33,604 nt of DNA from Chloroflexota bacterium (GTDB lineage: Bacteria > Chloroflexota > Limnocylindria > Limnocylindrales > CSP1-4). The DNA lies in the NCBI GenBank assembly GCA_016875645.1, contig VGPE01000003.1, forward strand, positions 1 through 33,604, given 5' to 3'. The position numbers were made by a program, and so were the translations under genes. Every line of letters begins with the position of its first letter. Position 1 is the stretch's first letter. Positions 21,582 to 33,371 of the stretch are shown in pieces. The notes beneath the pieces were generated by a model. That model searched no databases, was not told the origin of the DNA, and saw only the letters and a list, made by a program, of their open reading frames with translations.

Positions 21582-22856
21582 GTGCGCCCGGTCACGGTCC
21601 TGATCCTCCACCCGCCATCCCCCGCAGACGGTGGCGAGCCCGTCCGCTGGCTTGCGACCGCCCGCGAGGTCATCGCCGAGGGGCATCGCGCCGCCTTCGT
21701 GGCGGCCGGGGCGGAACACGTGCGCGTCGTGAGCCAGGATGGCGGGCCGCTCACGTTCGGCCAGCGACTGCGCTCCCTGGCGCGCGAGGTGGTCGAGGCG
21801 ACCCTGCCCGGCCGTCGCCATGGCCTCGTCGTCATCGGGTCGGGGGCGATGCCGCTGGCGCGCCGCTTGGACCTCGAGGAGTTCGTCAGGGTGGCCCGCA
21901 GTGTCGCGCGACGCCCGGTTGCGCTCGCCAACAGCTACTACTCGGCCGACGCCGTTGCGATCCCGGACGCGGCCATCCTCCTGGCCCTGCCGGACCTGCC
22001 GTCTGATAACGCGCTCCCGCGCTGGCTCGCGGAGCGGGCCGGCGTGCCCGTGCGCGATCGCCGGAACGTCTGGCGCCTCAGTGTCGACATCGACTCGCCA
22101 CTCGATGTGGTCCTGCTCGCCGGTGATCCCGGTTGTCCGCCGGCACTCCGCGCGCTCGCCCGCGAAATCGCGGCCGGTGCCCCCGAGTTCACCGACGCCC
22201 TGCGTGGCGTCGTGGCGGTGATGGCGGACCGGCGCTCTGAGCTCTTCGTGGCCGGCCGCTCGTCGTCACGGACCCTGCGCTGGCTCGAGACCCGTGTGGC
22301 CTGCCGCGTCCGCGCCCTCATCGAGGAGCGGGGCATGCGCTCTGGCACCGCCCTTGCGCTGGGGGACCTCGACGAGGAACGCGACCAGCCACCGGCCGTC
22401 CCGGCGGCCTCGGTCGAGCTCGCCCCGCCGCGATCGCTGCTGGCGCTGGCCCTTGACGAATCCGGCCCGCGACAATTGGCACCGCTGATCGGTCAGCTCT
22501 GCGACGCGGCGGTGCTCGACAGCCGGGTCCTGCTGGCGCACCGGCTCGGGAGCGACGAGCGGCGCTGGCCACCGCTGGCACAGCGGCTCGCGTCCGATCT
22601 CCTCCGCCCTGACGAGGTGCGCGATCCGTGGCTGCGCGAGCTGACGCGGCGGGCATTGGCCGCGCGCCGGCCGATCCTGCTGGGTGGGCACACCCTGGTG
22701 GGACCCGGGCTGCCCCTGATCCCCGGTGCCGTTCGCTGGTTGGATCAGCCGGAGGAGCCGGAGGAGCCGGAGAAGCCGGCCGCGCCGGAGCCGGAGGAGC
22801 CGGCCGCGCCGTCGGATGCGCGGCTGCGGCCGAGCCTCTGGGATGAGGCGACATGA
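21582..22856 (+). CDS. Uncharacterised protein, N-terminal half possibly nucleotidyltransferase/GT-A-like
   Basis: GLVVIGSGAMPLARRLDLEEFV, LPDLPSDNALPRWL, WRLSVDIDSPLDVVLLA pattern reminiscent of NTP-transferase folds; Pro/Glu-rich C-terminus; stop overlaps the next ATG. Confidence 0.5.
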   Translation: MRPVTVLILHPPSPADGGEPVRWLATAREVIAEGHRAAFVAAGAEHVRVVSQDGGPLTFGQRLRSLAREVVEATLPGRRHGLVVIGSGAMPLARRLDLEEFVRVARSVARRPVALANSYYSADAVAIPDAAILLALPDLPSDNALPRWLAERAGVPVRDRRNVWRLSVDIDSPLDVVLLAGDPGCPPALRALAREIAAGAPEFTDALRGVVAVMADRRSELFVAGRSSSRTLRWLETRVACRVRALIEERGMRSGTALALGDLDEERDQPPAVPAASVELAPPRSLLALALDESGPRQLAPLIGQLCDAAVLDSRVLLAHRLGSDERRWPPLAQRLASDLLRPDEVRDPWLRELTRRALAARRPILLGGHTLVGPGLPLIPGAVRWLDQPEEPEEPEKPAAPEPEEPAAPSDARLRPSLWDEAT

Positions 22857-24010
22857 CGGCGCCCCTGTCCGATGCCGAGCTGGCCGAGATCATCGGGCGG
22901 GAGATCGACGGTGCGGGCGGGGCGATCCCGTTCGCCCGCTTCATGGAGCTTGCGCTCTATGACCCGGATCACGGGTACTACCTCCAGCCACGACCTGCCG
23001 CCGGCCGGCACGGCGCAGACTTCCTGACGGCGCCCGAGCTGCACCCGATCTTCGGCCAGGTGGTTGCCCGCCAGATCGCGGAGATGCGATCCCGCCTGGG
23101 CGAACCGCCCGACTTCACCATCCGGGAGTACGCGGCCGGCAGTGGCGCGCTGGCCGAGGCGATCCTGGGCGAGATGGGCGCGGACGTCCGCTACGAAGCG
23201 ATCGAGCTCAACCGGCATCGGCGTGCGGAGCTGGCAGCGCGCCTGCCCCTGGCGCGGGTCACGGCCGGCGCGTCCGACACCCCGATCACCGGGGTCGTCC
23301 TCGCCAACGAGCTGCTGGACGCTCTGCCCGTCCACCGCGTGGTGATGCGCGGCGGGCGCCTGCGGGAGGTCTACGTTCGACGAGGCGAAACCGCCCGGTC
23401 CTTCACCGACCAGGAGGGCGAGCCCTCCACGCCGGCCCTCGCGGCACGCCTGGCGGCCGAGGGCGTGGACCTTGCCGACGGTCAGCGGAGTGAAGTCAAC
23501 CTTGGCATCGAGGCGTGGCTGGCCGAAGCAGCCACGGGGCTGCACCGCGGCTACATGCTGATCGTCGACTACGGGTACCGGGCCGCGGACCTCTATTCCG
23601 AGCGCAGGGGGGCCGGCACGTTGCTGAGCTACTCGGGCCACCGCGTGGTCGACGATCCGTACGCCGACGTCGGACGGCAGGACCTCACCGCCCACGTGGA
23701 CTTCACGGCCGTGGAACGTGCCGCACGTCGAGCCGGCCTGACGCCCCTGGGCCTCACGAGCCAGGCGGAGTTCCTCGTCGGGGCCGGCGCGGAAACCGTC
23801 GTGGAGCGCGTCCGGACTGATCCCGCGACCGACCTGGCGGGTTGGGTTGCGCTCCGCTCCGCGCTCGGCCGGCTGCTGGATCCCCGTGCCATGGGCGCCT
23901 TCAAGGTGTGCGTGCTTGGCCGAGGGATCCCGATCGAGCCACCGCTGCAGGGTCTCGCGTACCGCATCGCGGGGCCACCGGCGGCGGCACCGGGCGGGGA
24001 CGCACAGTAG
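22853..24010 (+). CDS. SAM-dependent methyltransferase, MidA/NDUFAF7 family
   Basis: IPFARFMELALYDPDHGYYLQ..DFLTAPELHPIFGQVVARQIAEM, EYAAGSGALAEAIL, VLANELLDALPVHRV. Confidence 0.88.
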   Translation: MTAPLSDAELAEIIGREIDGAGGAIPFARFMELALYDPDHGYYLQPRPAAGRHGADFLTAPELHPIFGQVVARQIAEMRSRLGEPPDFTIREYAAGSGALAEAILGEMGADVRYEAIELNRHRRAELAARLPLARVTAGASDTPITGVVLANELLDALPVHRVVMRGGRLREVYVRRGETARSFTDQEGEPSTPALAARLAAEGVDLADGQRSEVNLGIEAWLAEAATGLHRGYMLIVDYGYRAADLYSERRGAGTLLSYSGHRVVDDPYADVGRQDLTAHVDFTAVERAARRAGLTPLGLTSQAEFLVGAGAETVVERVRTDPATDLAGWVALRSALGRLLDPRAMGAFKVCVLGRGIPIEPPLQGLAYRIAGPPAAAPGGDAQ

Positions 24011-24113: not shown

Positions 24114-24488
24114 ATGAAACATGAGGTTGACGTGACCGGCGTCTGGTACGTGCTGGGCTTCGCGTTCGCGGGGGTCTCGTTCGTGTTCCTGACGATCGGC
24201 GCGTCCTGGCTGCTCACCCACCGCAACAAGGGCGACCATCACAAGGGACTGCCCTACGAGAGCGGCATCGATACGTACGGCGACCCACACGCGCGGTTCG
24301 GCCTCTCGTTCTACATCTACGCTCTGCTCTTTGTCGCCTTCGACATTGAGGTCATCTTCATCTACCTCTGGGCGATCATCTTCAAGGACCTGTTGCTGGG
24401 CGGCTTCGTGAGCATGCTCATCTTCGTGGCCATCCTGATGCTGGGGCTCGCCTACGCCTGGCGGAAGGGAGTGCTCACGTGGCGCTGA
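24114..24488 (+). CDS. nuoA: NADH-quinone oxidoreductase subunit A
   Basis: [44 protein letters not shown]. Confidence 0.93.
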
Positions 24489-25240
24489 CTCCTGATGCGC
24501 CCGGTGCCCCCGGTGGCGCCGCCCCCGGCGACGTGACCGCAGGCGCCTCCGGGCAGGCCGGAACCATGCCGGTCGCCATGCCGGCGGATTCGTCGCGGGC
24601 GCTCACCGAGGCGATCGTCGTCCCCAATTCGCTGTGGACCTCGGCCAACCCGATTGCCTACAACGGCGGACGGCCCGCAGAGATCACGCACCTGCGCGAG
24701 TGGGCGCAGACCGAGGATGCTCGACGCGACAACGCCCGCTGGGGGGCGCTCGAGGTGATCCCGACCAAGGCGGACTACGTGCTGGACCTCATCCGCGCGA
24801 ACAGCCTCTGGCCGCTCCTGTCGGGACTGGCGTGCTGTGCCATCGAGATGATGTCGGCGGCCACCAGCAAGAACGATATGGACCGCTGGGGGATGTTCCC
24901 GTTCCGCGCCAGTCCCCGCCAGGCCGACGTGCTGATCGTGGCGGGAACCCTGACCACGAAGATGTCCGGCCCGCTGCTCCGGCTCTGGGAGCAGATGCCG
25001 GAGCCCAAGTGGTGCGTGGCGATGGGTGACTGCACCGTGTCGGGCGGCCGCTACAAGCGCAGCTACTCCACGGTCGAGGGAATCGACCGGATCATGCCGG
25101 TCGACGTGTACGTGCCCGGCTGTCCCCCGCGACCCGAGGGGCTGATCTTCGGGATGATGAAGCTGCAGCAGCTCGTCAAAGACCGCCGCGGCCACTGGCC
25201 CGAGCGGATGGTTGGGCCCAACGTGCCCGACGGCGTCTGA
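24479..25240 (+). CDS. nuoB: NADH-quinone oxidoreductase subunit B, with N-terminal extension
   Basis: [29 protein letters not shown]2-cluster ligands; GTG start overlapping the nuoA end. Confidence 0.92.
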
Positions 25241-25251
25241 GCGGGACGATC

Positions 25252-25803
25252 ATGGATCCAGCGTTCAAGCGGCGGCTCGAGACCCGCTTCCGCGGCGTTC
25301 TCCTGGGCCCGGTCCACCAGCGCCACGACGAGACCGAGATCCGGGTGGGCCCGGGCGATGTCTCCGCGGTCATGCGCGCCCTCCACGACGAGCCGACCTT
25401 TCGCTTCGAGTTCCTCTCGGACGTGTGTGGCGTGGACACCGGCGTCGTGATGCAGGTGGTCTACCACCTCTGGAGCGAGACGACCGCGGACTGGCTGCGG
25501 GTCATCGCGGACGGCCTGTCGCGCGACGATCCGCGGGTCCCATCACTCACCCCGTTGTGGCCGGGTGCGGAGTGGATGGAACGCGAGGCCTACGACATGT
25601 TCGGCATCACGTTCGAGGGGAACCGCGACCTGCGGCGCATCTACATGCCGCCTGACTACATGGCGTTTCCGCTCCGCAAGGACTTCTATCTGCCCGACGA
25701 TGCGGCCCGTTCGCCCGGGGCCGGCGTTCGGCATGTCGAGCAGTCGCACGCCCCGGTGAATGCCGACCCGTCGGTCACGGTCCGGACGGCCCGCGGAGCC
25801 TGA
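25252..25803 (+). CDS. nuoC: NADH-quinone oxidoreductase subunit C
   Basis: FEFLSDVCGVD, VPSLTPLWPGAEWMEREAYDMFGITFEGNRDLRRIYMP. Confidence 0.92.
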   Translation: MDPAFKRRLETRFRGVLLGPVHQRHDETEIRVGPGDVSAVMRALHDEPTFRFEFLSDVCGVDTGVVMQVVYHLWSETTADWLRVIADGLSRDDPRVPSLTPLWPGAEWMEREAYDMFGITFEGNRDLRRIYMPPDYMAFPLRKDFYLPDDAARSPGAGVRHVEQSHAPVNADPSVTVRTARGA

Positions 25804-27152: not shown

Positions 27153-28493
27153 ATGACCACCGTTTCGCGGGCGTGGGGCCGGCTGACGCTGCCCGGGAAG
27201 ATCTTCTTCACGGTCGTGCCGCTGCTGCTCGTGCTCGGGCTGGGCGGGCTGATCGCGATCATGCTGCTGGGGCCGCTCGTGCTCCAGATCCTCGGCGACA
27301 ACCTGCCGCTCGTGCGGTTCGTCATCGCTGCAACCGCGGTGCTGCTCGCCGCGATCCCGATCGCCTTCCTGAACATCTTCATGGAAATGAAGGTCATTGC
27401 CTTCATGAACCTGCGGATCGGCCCCGATCGGGTTGGTCCCTGGGGCACCCTCCTGTCGGTCGTCCACGGGCTCAAGGTGCTCGGCAAGGAAGACTTCACC
27501 CCGACCGGCGCCGACCGGACCATCTTCACCTTGGCGCCGGTGGTGGTCTTCCTGGGCACCGTGATGTCGTTCCTGGTCATCCCGTTTGCACCCGGGCTGT
27601 TTGGCCAGGACTTCAACATCGGGCTGCTGTACTTCTTCGCGGTCGGCGGCCTGACGGTGGTCGGGCTGATGATGGCCGGCTGGGCCAGCTTCAACAAGTA
27701 CTCGCTCCTGGGCGGGCTCCGCGCCGCGGCGCAGATCGTCTCGTACGAGATCCCGTTGACGCTTTCGGTCGTCGGCATCCTCATGCTGGCCGGCACGATG
27801 AGCCTCAACCAGATCGTGCTCAACCAGTCCGGCTCGTTCCTGGACTGGTACGTGTTCCAGCAGCCGCTGGGCGCATTGATCTTCCTGATCGCCATCACCG
27901 CCGAGGCCAATCGCGCCCCGTTCGACCTGACCGAAGCCGATTCGGAGATCGTGGCGGGCTTTGCAACCGAGTACTCGGGCATGCGCTTCGGCTTCCTGTT
28001 CTTCGCCGAGTACGTGAACATGTTCATCGTCTCGGCCCTCACCGTGACGCTGTTCTTCGGCGGCTGGAACGCGCCGTTCGACTGGCCGTTCCCGATCAGC
28101 GCGAACCTCGATCCGGCGAGCCTCGGAATCGGGCTGCTGATCCTGGTGGCGGTGGTCCCCCTGATCGGAACCCTCGCGCTGGCAGCGCCGTTCTGGCTCA
28201 TGCGCAGCTCCATGCCCACCTGGCAGGCACTCGTGATCGGGTTCGTGCTGTTCAACGTGCTGGCGGTCGCGGCGGTCCTCGGCTGGGCCTTCGTCAGCTG
28301 GGAGTGGGTCGTCGGATTGCTCTGGTCTATGATCAAGGCCTACGGGTTCGTGTTCTTCTTCGTCTGGCTGCGCGGTACGCTGCCCCGCGTCCGGATCGAT
28401 CAGCTGATGAATTTCGCGTGGAAGTGGCTGCTGCCCGCGGCGCTTCTGAACCTGTTCGTGACAGCGCTCGCGATCATCGTGCTGGGCCGCTGA
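27153..28493 (+). CDS. nuoH: NADH-quinone oxidoreductase subunit H
   Basis: MNLRIGPDRVGPWGTLLSVVHGLKVLGKEDFTPTGADR, AEANRAPFDLTEADSEIVAGFATEYSGMRFGFLFFAEY. Confidence 0.95.
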   Translation: MTTVSRAWGRLTLPGKIFFTVVPLLLVLGLGGLIAIMLLGPLVLQILGDNLPLVRFVIAATAVLLAAIPIAFLNIFMEMKVIAFMNLRIGPDRVGPWGTLLSVVHGLKVLGKEDFTPTGADRTIFTLAPVVVFLGTVMSFLVIPFAPGLFGQDFNIGLLYFFAVGGLTVVGLMMAGWASFNKYSLLGGLRAAAQIVSYEIPLTLSVVGILMLAGTMSLNQIVLNQSGSFLDWYVFQQPLGALIFLIAITAEANRAPFDLTEADSEIVAGFATEYSGMRFGFLFFAEYVNMFIVSALTVTLFFGGWNAPFDWPFPISANLDPASLGIGLLILVAVVPLIGTLALAAPFWLMRSSMPTWQALVIGFVLFNVLAVAAVLGWAFVSWEWVVGLLWSMIKAYGFVFFFVWLRGTLPRVRIDQLMNFAWKWLLPAALLNLFVTALAIIVLGR

Positions 28494-28539: not shown

Positions 28540-29373
28540 ATGAGCTTGCTGTCGGGCCTGGTGCCCGGTCTGGGCCTGGCGAAGGGCATGGCGCTGGGCC
28601 TCGTGCGCTTCTTCCAGCCCAAGGCCACGATCATGTACCCGGAGGCGGCGCCGGACGTCAGCCCGCGCTTCCGCGGCCGGCTGCAACTGCTGTACGACGA
28701 GTGGGGCACGCTCAAGTGCGAGACGTGCTTCCAGTGCGCCCAGGCCTGCCCGATCGAGTGCATCGACATGGGTGGCATCGACACCAAGGGCCGCTTCCAC
28801 GTCCACTGGGGCCCGCCCGAGACCTACGGCGAGCGACGCGAGGAATCTGCGCTGCGGCGCTCCGGCCGCCCGGTGCCCGACCGCGAGTACGAGCACTTCG
28901 AGCCGATTGATATGAGGGCGGTGGACGAGGCCCTCGCGCGCTACGACTACGACCCAAAGGAGATGCTGCGCATCCTGGAGGCCACGGACGCGGCGTACGG
29001 CTACCTGCCGGTCGCAGCGCTCAAGCGGATCAGCGACGCGACCGGCGCGTGGTACGCGATGCTCTACGGCACGGCGTCCTATTACCGCCATCTGCGCTTC
29101 GATCCGCCGGTTCGAGTCGTCGCGGTCTGTCGCTGCACGAGCTGCCTGATGGCCGGCGGCGGGCGTGTGCTCGAGGTGCTCGAAGCCTCGCTCGGAACCG
29201 AGATCGGGTCAGTGCCGACACATGGTGGTATCCGCATCGAACAGCTGGCGAGCCACATCCCCGGCGCGACCGCACCGCTCGTCACGTTCGACGGGACCAC
29301 CCAGGTGGGGCTCACCGTGGAGTCCGCTGCAGCCTGGGCGCGGACACTCTCGGGCATCGGCGCCAGGGTTTGA
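28540..29373 (+). CDS. Fusion: NuoI-like N-terminal half (one 4Fe-4S motif) + NuoE-like thioredoxin-fold domain lacking the second Cys pair
   Basis: RFFQPKATIMYPEAAPDVSPRFRGRLQLL..CETCFQCAQACPIECI then VDEALARYDYDPKEMLRILEATDAAYGYLPVAALKRISDATGAWYAMLYGTASYYRHL and VCRCTSCLMAGG. Confidence 0.75.
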   Translation: MSLLSGLVPGLGLAKGMALGLVRFFQPKATIMYPEAAPDVSPRFRGRLQLLYDEWGTLKCETCFQCAQACPIECIDMGGIDTKGRFHVHWGPPETYGERREESALRRSGRPVPDREYEHFEPIDMRAVDEALARYDYDPKEMLRILEATDAAYGYLPVAALKRISDATGAWYAMLYGTASYYRHLRFDPPVRVVAVCRCTSCLMAGGGRVLEVLEASLGTEIGSVPTHGGIRIEQLASHIPGATAPLVTFDGTTQVGLTVESAAAWARTLSGIGARV

Positions 29374-29377
29374 CCGG

Positions 29378-30727
29378 ATGACCCGATTGCTCGCCACTCC
29401 CGCCGAGTGGCCGCGGATCCTGCTCGCCCGCGCCGAACGGGACATCTCCGTCCCTGACCTGGCACCAGAGACGGGCCCCGACCTCGAGCGGGCCTTCACC
29501 CTCGGCGCGTTCGAGGGATTGCGACTCGCCATTGACGAGCTCGGGCCTGAGGGCGTCATCGGCGAGGTCGAGCGGGCGAACCTTCGGGGCCGCGGCGGCG
29601 CGGGGCACCCGGCGGCGGCCAAGTGGCGAGCGGCACGGGCCCAGGAGAGCAGCCGCCGGTTCGTCGTCGCGAACGGCTACGGCGCCGATCCCGCGTCGTT
29701 CACCGACATGATCCTGATGGAACGCGACCCCTGGGCCATTCTCGAAGGCATCGCGATCGTCGCCTACACGATCCGGGCGACCGAGGCGGTGATCGCGATC
29801 CGGGCCGAGTACACCGAGGCCATCCGCCGGCTCGACGAGGCCATCCTCGCCGCCGAGGAGGCCGGCTTCCTGGGCACCGACATCCTGGAGTCGGGCGTCA
29901 ACCTCACGGTCACGGTCCGGGTGGTGCAGGGTGCATACATGCTGGGCGAGGAGACCGTCCTGCTCAAGGCCCTCGAGGGCAAGCGCGGCCAGCCCGAGCA
30001 GCGGCCGCCCTACCCCGCGGCGCGCGGGCTCTTCGGCCAGCCGACGGTGGTCCACAACGTCGCGACTCTCGCCGCCGTGCCGTGGATCATCGCCAACGGC
30101 GCCGCAGCGTTCGCGGCCATCGGCTCGCCCGACGCACCGGGTACTGCTTTGGTCCAGGTCCGCGGCCTTGAAACGGAGGGCATCGCGGAGGTCCCGACGG
30201 GCACCCCGCTGCGCGAGATCGTTGGCCTAACGGCCGCGTTCGGCGGCGGCCGGAAGATCAAGGCGGTCCTCGTCGGCGGGCCGTCCGGCGGCCTGCTACC
30301 GGCCGACCTGCTCGACACCCCATATGCGTTCGAGGCGCTGCGGTCCGTCGGCGGCCATATCGGCTCGGGCTCCGTGGTCGTGGCCGACGAGCGCGCCTGT
30401 GTCGTGGACCTCGCCCGCCTCCTCACCCGGTTCTGCGCGGATGAAGCGTGCGGCAAGACAATCCCGTGCCGGATCGGCCTCAGACGCCTGGCGGAGATCG
30501 CCGAGCGCGCCACGAACGGCCACCCGCGGCCCACCGACGCCCAACTCATCAGCGACCTCTGCCACGATGTCTCCGAATCCGGGCTGTGCGACCACGAGCG
30601 CCTTGCGACCCTTCCGCTGACGACCGGGATGCGATACTTCCGCTCCGAACTCGACGATCACCTGCTCCGCGGGACGTGCCCTGCCGGCGTCTGCCGGCCG
30701 ATCGCCGTGAGCGGAGCGGCGCACTGA
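29378..30727 (+). CDS. Divergent NuoF-like subunit
   Basis: LRGRGGAGHPAAAKW, GAYMLGEETVLLKALEGKRGQPEQRPPYPAARGLFGQPTVVHNVATLA, ACGKTIPCR; several canonical motifs altered. Confidence 0.85.
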   Translation: MTRLLATPAEWPRILLARAERDISVPDLAPETGPDLERAFTLGAFEGLRLAIDELGPEGVIGEVERANLRGRGGAGHPAAAKWRAARAQESSRRFVVANGYGADPASFTDMILMERDPWAILEGIAIVAYTIRATEAVIAIRAEYTEAIRRLDEAILAAEEAGFLGTDILESGVNLTVTVRVVQGAYMLGEETVLLKALEGKRGQPEQRPPYPAARGLFGQPTVVHNVATLAAVPWIIANGAAAFAAIGSPDAPGTALVQVRGLETEGIAEVPTGTPLREIVGLTAAFGGGRKIKAVLVGGPSGGLLPADLLDTPYAFEALRSVGGHIGSGSVVVADERACVVDLARLLTRFCADEACGKTIPCRIGLRRLAEIAERATNGHPRPTDAQLISDLCHDVSESGLCDHERLATLPLTTGMRYFRSELDDHLLRGTCPAGVCRPIAVSGAAH

Positions 30728-30773: not shown

Positions 30774-33371
30774 ATGACCGACCTGATCGTCCGCCCGGAC
30801 GCCGACGCCACCGCCCTCGCCGAGACGCTGCTCACGATCCAGGCGCCGCAGCGCCCGGTGGCAACGCCGCGCATCCGGATCGAAGTGGACGGTCGCGTCG
30901 TGGAGGGATTCGAGGGCCAGACGATCCTCGAGGTCTGCCGCGACAACGGCATCGAGATCCCGACGCTCTGCTACGAGCCCAAGCTGCCGGGCTTCGGCGC
31001 CTGCCGGATGTGCGTCGTCGAGGTCGAGGGCGAGGACCACCCGCCGATTTCCTGTTCACGCTCGGCTGAGGCGGGCATGAAGGTCCAGACCCAGACCGAG
31101 GAGATGCGCCGGCTGCGCAGAACCAACCTCGAGCTGATCTTCAGCGACCACAACGCGTACTGCCTGCCGCCGTGCCAGAACAAGTGCCCGAGTCACATCG
31201 ACATCCCGGGCTTCCTCAAGATGAACGCCGAGACGAACTGGCGGGAATCCACGCGGATCTTCAAGCGCACGATCCCCTTCCCGTCGGTCCTCGGCCGGGT
31301 CTGCCCTGCCCCGTGCGAGGAGCACTGCCGGCGCGACGAGGTGGACGAGGCGATCGCGATCCGCGACTCGCACCGCTACGCCGGCGACCAGGTGCTCAAG
31401 CAGATGAACGACCAGGGCATCGACCCGCCCGTCCCGTTCGAGCTGCGCGAGAAGAGCGGGCGCCGGGTGGCGGTGATCGGATCCGGGCCCGCGGGCGCTG
31501 CCGCGGCGTACTACCTGCTCATCGTCGGCCACGACGTGACGATCTTCGAGCGTGACGCGGCTCCGGGCGGCATGCTCCGCTACGGCATCCCCCAGTACCG
31601 CCTGCCCAAGGTCGAGGTGCTCGAGGGCGAGTACGAGAGCATCACCCGCCTCGGCGGCCGCTTCGTGTGCAACCAGGGCCTGGGTCGCGACTTCACGCTC
31701 GACGACCTCCAGAACCAGGGCTACGACGCGGTCCTCGTCGCGATCGGGTGCTACGACACCAATAAGCTCGGGATCCCGGGTGAGGACGCCGACGGCGTCA
31801 TCGACGGACTCGAGTACCTGCGGACCGCGACGCTCGGCCTGGAGTACCCGGGCCACAAGGGCAGCCGGGTGGTCGTGATCGGCGGCGGCTTCACCTCGAT
31901 GGACTGCACGCGCACGTCCGTGCGCCAGGGTGCCGCCGACGTGACCCTCGTTTACCGGCGCGACATGAAGGACATGCCGGCGTCGAACGAGGTCCACGAG
32001 GCGATCGAGGAAGGCGCGACGGCGATCTTCCAGGCCGGCCCGGTCCGGGTCGTCACCGACGCGAATAACAAGGTGACCGGCGTTGAGTTCATCCGGATGC
32101 GCCTGGGCGAGCCCGACGCATCCGGCCGGCGACGCCCGGAACCGGCGGCCGGCACCGAGTTCACGCTGCCCTGCGACCGGGTGCTGCTGGCGATCGGCCA
32201 GGGCCCCGACCTGTCGTGGATCGGGCCCGGCAGCGAGGGCCCCAAGCCGAATCGCCAGCGCCGTCTGGCGGCTGACGCAGTCACCTTCGCCACCGGGCGG
32301 CCCGGCGTGTTCGGGACCGGCGACGTCCGCATCGGGTCCGCAACGGTCGTGGAAGCCGTCGCCGAGGGTCGGCGGGCCGCCTACGCGGCGGACGCCTACG
32401 TGCGCGGGATGGACCTCGATGCGATCCGGACGCGCCAGACCCTGGCCGAGCCGAAGCCGGAGTTCCTCTCGATCGTGCCGTTCACGAGCGAGGCCAAGGA
32501 GCCGCGCTACCGCATGACGGCCATGGAGCCCGAGGCGCGCAACACCAACTACATCGAGTACGAGATCCCGTATACCCGCGAGGCGGCCGTCGCCGAGTCC
32601 ACGCGCTGTCTCCAGTGCACGTGCGAGGCGATCGGGTTCTGCGACCTGCGGCGCCTGGGGATCGAGTACGGCACGACACTGCGCACCCTGGAGCCGCAGC
32701 ATCACAGTGGGGCGGGCCATCGCTCGGTGACCGAGAACCGGTTCACAGGCACCAATCACGACTACCTTCGCGACGACAGCCACGCCTTCATCCTGCGCGA
32801 GCCCTCGCGCTGCATCGACTGCGGACGCTGCGCCAACGTCTGTGCGGAGGTCGTTGGGGCCGCCTGCTACGACTTCATGCGGATCGGCTTCGACACGCTC
32901 GTGACGACGCCGCTCGACATGAGCCTCAACGACACCCCGTGCGTGTCCTGCGGCCGCTGTGCGGAGACGTGCCCGACCGGCGCCCTCATGCCCAAGCCCC
33001 GCGTCCTGCAGAAGTACGAGGTGGACGAGAGCCGCTGCATCCTGTGCGGCATCTGCGTGGATGCCTGCCCGTACGACGCGCTGCGCGACAGCACCGAGCT
33101 CGAGCTTGCGCACGACAGCCGTGTGCAGCCGATGATCGACCTGCTGGCGTATTCAGCCACGGCACGCGACACCGAGGTCAGCTACATCCGACGCGAGCGC
33201 GACTGGGCCGAACGGGCCATGGCCGAGGGCCGCCTGCTCGATCCCGGCCGCCTCCTGCCCGTCCTGCCCGCAACGATCGGTGCGCGCGTTCCCGGCGCCG
33301 GTGGCGAGGGCAACGGTCACGGCCATGGCAACGGCCACGGCTCGGCGTCACTGCCTGCCCATCACAAGTAA
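30774..33371 (+). CDS. Multidomain iron-sulfur flavoprotein: NuoG-type 2Fe-2S + GltD/NfnB-like FAD/NAD(P) oxidoreductase + 4Fe-4S domains, NuoI-like C-terminus
   Basis: CYEPKLPGFGACRMCVVEVEG...; CLPPCQNKCPSHIDIPGF; GRVCPAPCEEHC; VAVIGSGPAGAAAAYYLL; VVVIGGGFTSMDCTRTSVRQGAADVTLVYRR; CIDCGRCANVC; CVSCGRCAETCPTGAL; CILCGICVDACPYDAL. Confidence 0.88.
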   Translation: MTDLIVRPDADATALAETLLTIQAPQRPVATPRIRIEVDGRVVEGFEGQTILEVCRDNGIEIPTLCYEPKLPGFGACRMCVVEVEGEDHPPISCSRSAEAGMKVQTQTEEMRRLRRTNLELIFSDHNAYCLPPCQNKCPSHIDIPGFLKMNAETNWRESTRIFKRTIPFPSVLGRVCPAPCEEHCRRDEVDEAIAIRDSHRYAGDQVLKQMNDQGIDPPVPFELREKSGRRVAVIGSGPAGAAAAYYLLIVGHDVTIFERDAAPGGMLRYGIPQYRLPKVEVLEGEYESITRLGGRFVCNQGLGRDFTLDDLQNQGYDAVLVAIGCYDTNKLGIPGEDADGVIDGLEYLRTATLGLEYPGHKGSRVVVIGGGFTSMDCTRTSVRQGAADVTLVYRRDMKDMPASNEVHEAIEEGATAIFQAGPVRVVTDANNKVTGVEFIRMRLGEPDASGRRRPEPAAGTEFTLPCDRVLLAIGQGPDLSWIGPGSEGPKPNRQRRLAADAVTFATGRPGVFGTGDVRIGSATVVEAVAEGRRAAYAADAYVRGMDLDAIRTRQTLAEPKPEFLSIVPFTSEAKEPRYRMTAMEPEARNTNYIEYEIPYTREAAVAESTRCLQCTCEAIGFCDLRRLGIEYGTTLRTLEPQHHSGAGHRSVTENRFTGTNHDYLRDDSHAFILREPSRCIDCGRCANVCAEVVGAACYDFMRIGFDTLVTTPLDMSLNDTPCVSCGRCAETCPTGALMPKPRVLQKYEVDESRCILCGICVDACPYDALRDSTELELAHDSRVQPMIDLLAYSATARDTEVSYIRRERDWAERAMAEGRLLDPGRLLPVLPATIGARVPGAGGEGNGHGHGNGHGSASLPAHHK

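What the first reader, a model, noticed from the sequence alone, without database searches (positions are those of the whole stretch)
29378..30727. NuoF homolog with altered FMN/NADH loop and a Thr replacing a conserved N3 cysteine
Canonical NuoF has NADESEPGT(F/C)KDR and (E)SCGxCxPCR. Here the equivalents are ANGYGADPASFTDM (about 29667-29710) and ACGKTIPCR, where the middle cysteine is Thr (codon 30458-30460). The later Cys is kept (30587-30589), and extra Cys occur nearby (FCADEAC, DLCHD). GAYxCGEETAL is GAYMLGEETVL. The N3 cluster and NADH site may be changed, so NADH may not be the donor at this subunit.
Basis: partly seen in the sequence, partly recalled or inferred. Interest (0 to 1): 0.72.

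Follow-up and report, generated by a model that had tools for sequence, protein, structure and literature searches.

The report
Complex I rebuilt for NADPH input
In a whole class of uncultured soil and freshwater bacteria (Limnocylindria), the respiratory proton pump complex I keeps only a worn-down version of its usual NADH-reading subunit and instead carries a fused, highly conserved NADPH-type flavoprotein, so it probably runs on NADPH rather than NADH.

Summary
It is no error: in 91 distinct orthologues the position is T73/S12/A4/C2, while the other three N3 cysteines and GEET are 91/91. It lies in a complex I operon, nuoA-B-C-D-H-[I/E]-F'-[GltD fusion]-J-K-L-M-N, conserved across the Chloroflexota class Limnocylindria. 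(1) NuoG is replaced by an 865-residue fusion of a [2Fe-2S] domain, a GltD-type FAD/NADPH domain and ferredoxin motifs, the most conserved part of the input module. (2) NuoI is split: its N-half is fused to NuoE and its C-half ends the GltD fusion (16/16 genomes; none has an intact NuoI). (3) The N1a site is incomplete or deleted. All three input subunits have their best PDB match in the same complex, NfnABC/Stn. Best reading: an NADPH:quinone complex I, with an NfnABC-like module rerouted into NuoI and F' kept as scaffold with a three-Cys N3. The donor is inferred, not shown. I found no earlier report in the open-access library.

The parts
24117..24488 (+). nuoA (membrane subunit)
   Evidence: PF00507, E 1.7e-31
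24479..25240 (+). nuoB; N2 ligand motifs CC (24833-24838), GDC (25025-25033), GCPP (25118-25129) kept
   Evidence: PF01058, NuoB models over cut-off; motifs
25252..25803 (+). nuoC
   Evidence: PF00329
25760..27025 (+). nuoD
   Evidence: PF00346, E 7e-85
27153..28493 (+). nuoH
   Evidence: PF00146, E 1e-105
28540..29373 (+). NuoI N-half fused to a degenerate NuoE (277 aa). One CxxCxxCxxxCP only (28717-28752); the NuoE domain keeps two of four N1a cysteines here and none in several relatives
   Evidence: TIGR01971 model 1-63 = residues 16-79; PDB NuoI chains; alignment of 21 loci
29378..30727 (+). F': NuoF/HydB/NfnB-type subunit (449 aa) with altered nicotinamide loop and N3 Cys->Thr
   Evidence: PF01512 and PF10589 over cut-off, TIGR01959 343 bits vs cut-off 559; AlphaFold2 model pLDDT 88, best fold match Nfn-ABC 9bov_B TM 0.90
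29669..29710 (+). Altered flavin/nicotinamide loop ANGYGADPASFTDM
30458..30460 (+). Thr361 codon (ACA) in place of the second N3 cysteine
30587..30595 (+). C404-D405-H406: last N3 cysteine plus a His at the place of E. coli His400
   Evidence: PMC8357420
30774..33371 (+). G': N1b-type [2Fe-2S] domain + GltD/NfnA-type FAD/NADPH domain + NuoG-like 2x[4Fe-4S] + NuoI C-half (865 aa), in place of NuoG
   Evidence: PF13510, PF14691, PF07992, PF00037; best PDB hit 9bov_A; alignment
31881..31964 (+). NADPH-type Rossmann motif GGGFTSMD...LVYRRD
   Evidence: conserved core in 12 loci of f1, f2, f5; position
33036..33128 (+). NuoI C-half at the end of G': CILCGICVDACPYDAL...
   Evidence: TIGR01971 model 71-113; PDB NuoI chains

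Best explanation
This is the electron-input end of the only complex I in Limnocylindria. An NfnABC/Stn-like three-subunit module (NuoE-like, NuoF-like, GltD/NuoG-N-like) sits where NuoEFG should be. NADPH gives a hydride to FAD in the GltD domain of the 865-aa protein. Electrons run through its Fe-S clusters to the C-terminal ferredoxin region, then into two [4Fe-4S] clusters (N6a, N6b) built from the two halves of a split NuoI (one half on the I/E protein, one on the GltD fusion), then to N2 in NuoB and to quinone, driving the membrane pump. F' is kept mainly as a scaffold, probably with FMN and a three-Cys N3 cluster (fourth ligand Thr/Ser, the nearby His406, or none), and no longer works as the main NADH dehydrogenase. 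Shown: gene order, domain content, motif loss and retention, the NuoI split, conservation, lack of NuoG (own genome). Inferred: NADPH as donor, the route, the role of F', the state of N3.
For: Conserved operon A-B-C-D-H-[I/E]-F'-G'-J-K-L-M-N in f1, f2 and f5. G' keeps FAD and NADPH motifs and its Fe-S cysteines and is the most conserved module subunit: pairwise dN/dS 0.07-0.21 against 0.21-0.38 for F'. All three input subunits have their best PDB sequence hit in one entry, 9bov Nfn-ABC. In Stn the homologous subunit oxidises NADPH at this FAD, even alone (PMC7483475; PMC10482914). N1a cysteines never complete, domain deleted in several genera. No PF01512 protein other than F' in the f2, f4 and f5 genomes tested, except one sub-cut-off 20-bit hit in G162. 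Only one molybdopterin-domain protein in the own genome, so no NuoG. NuoI halves in 16/16 genomes, no intact NuoI. PntB transhydrogenase in 38/38 class genomes sampled against 70/263 other Chloroflexota.
Against: No biochemistry. FMN-contact residues and three N3 cysteines of F' are too well kept for a pure relic. The E93 equivalent survives in 23/91, so some members may still use NADH. NADPH over NADH at G' rests on family knowledge and motifs. PntAB is common in aerobes and the class is one clade, so that association is weak. NDH-2 was not searched.
Confidence: 0.6

Rival explanations
1. Dual-entry or confurcating complex I: NADPH enters at G', and F' (FMN + three-Cys N3) still handles NADH, or another donor or acceptor, so the complex couples NADPH and NAD(H) pools to quinone.
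For: GEET 91/91, GRGGAG, K82 and three N3 cysteines conserved; E93 equivalent kept in f2 and 23/91 overall; parent Nfn/Stn enzymes couple NADPH and NAD+.
Against: The window and most f1 members lack the E93 equivalent; D92 is replaced in all aligned members; no BfuB N-terminal 2Fe-2S or C-terminal 2x4Fe-4S domain in the 449-aa chain; N1a lost; one N3 ligand missing.
Confidence: 0.2
2. Ordinary NADH-dependent complex I with cosmetic motif drift: NADH is still oxidised at F', and G' only passes electrons on as NuoG does.
For: Over the Pfam cut-offs for PF01512 and PF10589; confident NuoF-like fold; FMN residues kept.
Against: Active-site loop, N3 ligand and N1a all changed across a class; falls below all NuoF equivalog cut-offs; G' keeps a complete GltD FAD/NADPH site under strong constraint.
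Confidence: 0.1
3. Ferredoxin (or flavodoxin) is the real donor to the ferredoxin-like end of G' or to the I/E half-ferredoxin; the GltD domain works as an NADP+-reducing exit.
For: An 11-subunit complex I lacking the NADH-oxidising module exists in many bacteria (PMC11238625, abstract); G' is rich in 4Fe-4S motifs.
Against: No ferredoxin docking feature identified; the GltD site is among the most conserved elements; PntAB already links the NAD and NADP pools.
Confidence: 0.1

Closest known systems
Stn (StnABC, Sporomusa) / NfnABC transhydrogenase (PDB 8oh5, 9bov, 9n5u)
   Same: Same three homologous subunits; FAD/NADPH GltD domain fused behind a [2Fe-2S] domain in A/StnC; best sequence and fold matches.
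   Different: Here joined to a complex I operon; F' (449 aa) lacks the parent's N-terminal 2Fe-2S and C-terminal 2x4Fe-4S domains; N1a-type 2Fe-2S lost; N3 lacks a Cys; no inactive FdhF domain, its place being taken by a NuoI C-half.
Nuo-Bfu (e.g. Geobacter; PMC9304861)
   Same: A BfuABC-type module replaces NuoEFG in a complex I operon.
   Different: Nuo-Bfu is predicted to confurcate NADH and ferredoxin through an intact BfuBC core; here that core is dismantled and BfuA carries a GltD domain plus half of NuoI.
Canonical complex I (NuoA-N, E. coli / Thermus)
   Same: Quinone and pump subunits A, B, C, D, H, J-N and N2 motifs.
   Different: NuoG gone, NuoE and NuoF degenerate, NuoI split between two proteins.
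11-subunit complex I without NuoEFG
   Same: Non-NADH input to the same core.
   Different: Here a dedicated, conserved flavoprotein module replaces the missing part.

Membership tests
NuoF (NADH-binding complex I subunit) | NCBIfam equivalog score (TIGR01959, NF010120, NF008436) | tested here: not met
   343 vs 559, 254 vs 389, 253 vs 749 bits
NuoF (NADH-binding complex I subunit) | Four N3 cysteines | tested here: not met
   C358, T361, C364, C404; three of four, in 89/91 orthologues
NuoF (NADH-binding complex I subunit) | NADE(S/M/G)(E/D)PG active-site loop | tested here: not met
   NGYGADPA; D92->Y, E93->G; E95->D only conservative
NuoF (NADH-binding complex I subunit) | Fold and 51-kDa domains | tested here: met
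   PF01512 and PF10589 over cut-off; TM about 0.8-0.9 to known NuoF/NfnB structures
NuoF (NADH-binding complex I subunit) | Binds FMN and oxidises NADH | not testable with these tools
   needs biochemistry or a structure
Bfu (BfuBC bifurcating core) | Five BfuB clusters and one BfuC cluster | tested here: not met
   449-aa F' matches only the central part of the longer BfuB-type chains; N1a/C1 cysteines incomplete; definition in PMC9304861
Stn/NfnABC | A/StnC-type subunit: [2Fe-2S] + GltD FAD/NADPH domain | tested here: met
   Domains, E 4e-157 to 9bov_A, conserved motifs
Stn/NfnABC | Intact StnAB bifurcating module | tested here: not met
Complex I | A, B, C, D, H, J, K, L, M, N subunits in one operon | tested here: met
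   f1, f2, f5 relatives; own genome A-H on C3 and K-N on C181
Complex I | Intact NuoI with two CxxCxxCxxxCP | tested here: not met
   0 of 16 genomes over the TIGR01971 cut-off; two halves in two genes
Complex I | NuoG with molybdopterin-type domain | tested here: not met
   Only one PF00384 protein in the own genome; it holds an in-frame TGA, lies on another contig (C149) and looks like a formate dehydrogenase

The most novel reading that the evidence does not exclude
A whole bacterial class respires through an NADPH-fed complex I made by grafting a dismantled NfnABC/Stn transhydrogenase onto the pump. The Fe-S branch that is a dead end in Stn has become the through-route, while the old FMN/N3 branch has become the remnant. 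The electrons cross into the core through two [4Fe-4S] clusters shared between two polypeptides, because NuoI is trans-split.
Probability: 0.5. Interest if true: 0.82.

Novelty: new variant of a known kind. Interest (0 to 1): 0.66.

Why it matters
Complex I is treated as the NADH entry to respiration. If this class, abundant in soils and fresh water, runs it on NADPH, then energy yields and NADPH budgets drawn from 'nuoF present' annotations are wrong for it, and the input module of complex I is more exchangeable than thought. The split NuoI predicts Fe-S clusters assembled across two chains, and the half-degraded F' is a natural series for which parts of NuoEF are needed for chemistry and which only for structure.

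Tried and rejected
Pseudogene or sequencing error: rejected, since orthologues share the changes and dN/dS of F' is 0.21-0.38. Rescue of N3 by C353 or C395: rejected, conserved in 62/91 and 4/91 only. His406 as universal fourth ligand: weakened, because f5 has Ala361 with Leu406, and two members of the CSP1-4 group keep Cys361 together with His. A second, normal NuoF elsewhere: the own genome has one, but in a formate dehydrogenase cluster; the f2, f4 and f5 genomes tested have none above the cut-off. Bifurcation at the GltD FAD: disfavoured, since the proximal-cluster region has VCPAPCEEHC as in Stn/NfnABC rather than the Nfn glutamate ligand (the exact glutamate position is from memory). The AlphaFold2 model could not be inspected atom by atom, so no cofactor docking was done.

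Full report
WHAT WAS CHECKED. The protein at 29378-30727 is intact and every motif named in the finding is there at the stated place. Against E. coli NuoF the N3 cysteines C351/C354/C357/C398 correspond to C358/T361/C364/C404, and the active-site loop CNADEMEPG reads ANGYGADPA.

NOT AN ACCIDENT. Orthologues exist in nearly all genomes of the same family (f1), in f2 (same order) and f5 (same class); the named GTDB records are all Chloroflexota MAGs, among them CSP1-4, Ca. Limnocylindrales and Ca. Aquidulcis. I take the class to be Limnocylindria from these names together with PMC13212565. In 91 distinct sequences T361 is T73/S12/A4/C2, while C358, C364, C404 and GEET are 91/91. Outside the class the phylum sample that was inspected has normal motifs. 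In a tree F' is one clade next to HydB/NfnB-type proteins: f4 branches first, then f5, then f1+f2. f4 and two CSP1-4-group members keep the second cysteine, so the loss happened inside the class, once with a reversal or more than once; I did not resolve which.

THE SURROUNDINGS. The window ends at its contig end; relatives show the whole operon nuoA-B-C-D-H-[I/E]-F'-G'-J-K-L-M-N, and in the own genome K-N lie on contig C181. In f4 the same complex seems divided over two loci, B-D-I/E-F''-G' and A-C-H-J-K-L-M-N, each lacking what the other has.

THE NEIGHBOUR THAT MATTERS. G' (30774-33371) is not NuoG. It has the N1b-type [2Fe-2S] domain, a GltD-type domain with FAD and NADPH motifs (GGMLRYGIPxYRLP; GGGFTSMD...LVYRRD), a CLQCTC region and ferredoxin motifs. 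Its best PDB match is NfnABC subunit A, and I/E and F' match subunits C and B of the same entry. The homologous Stn subunit oxidises NADPH at this FAD, and its C-terminal cluster branch is described there as a remnant off the electron path (PMC7483475, PMC10482914).

SPLIT NuoI. NuoI models match I/E over positions 1-63 and the end of G' over 71-113, without overlap. The same two halves appear in 16 of 16 genomes from f1, f2, f4 and f5, and none has an intact NuoI over the cut-off. Solved NuoI chains confirm it: for 8qby_I residues 18-81 match I/E and 93-140 match the end of G'; E. coli NuoI gives the same picture. By general knowledge of two-cluster ferredoxins, each cluster takes three cysteines from one motif and one from the other, so both clusters would be shared between two proteins (inference).

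DECAY OF NuoE/F. The I/E protein keeps at most two of four N1a cysteines, and the domain is gone in several genera near the window. F' is under purifying selection but has a higher dN/dS than G' in every pair tested except window/L058, where the two are about equal. Its fold is confidently predicted and closest to Nfn-ABC subunit B. The invariance of three N3 cysteines contrasts with the free loss at N1a and argues that some N3 cluster is still made. His406 (82/91) stands where E. coli His400 touches the N3 iron (PMC8357420), but it does not replace the cysteine in every lineage.

PHYSIOLOGY. PntB, which can make NADPH from NADH, is in 38/38 class genomes of the phylum sample, including the ~1-Mb ones, against 70/263 other Chloroflexota (the class members of the sample were counted). 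This fits the model but does not prove it.

JUDGEMENT. Works like: an NADPH-fed complex I (confidence 0.6). Member of: not NuoF in the strict sense, not Bfu, not Stn; a new variant combining known parts. No earlier description turned up in the held papers, but subscription journals and preprints were not searched.

Noticed in passing
22853-24010: A PF02636 (Methyltransf_28) methyltransferase lies directly upstream of nuoA. From memory this family includes NDUFAF7, a complex I assembly factor that methylates the NuoD homologue, so it may belong to the same operon.
   Followed up: partly
L083-L090 and L199-L203 (families f3, f4): In f4 the complex I genes appear divided over two distant loci, B-D-I/E-F''-G' and A-C-H-J-K-L-M-N, and F'' keeps the fourth N3 cysteine (CGICVPCR).
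   Followed up: partly
L001 (own genome contig C307) and L082 (C149): The own genome also has a NuoE/F-type fusion with normal motifs beside a NuoG-like gene, and a separate molybdopterin protein with in-frame TGA; together they look like a (seleno)formate dehydrogenase.
   Followed up: partly
genomes G007, G021, G056, G072 (family f1): A few genomes, two of them about 91% complete, lack strong F' and G' hits; some lineages may have lost complex I, or the contigs are missing.
   Followed up: no
L048: Elsewhere in Chloroflexota a NuoF-GltD single-chain fusion (1014 aa) with normal motifs occurs, a different joining of the same two domains.
   Followed up: no
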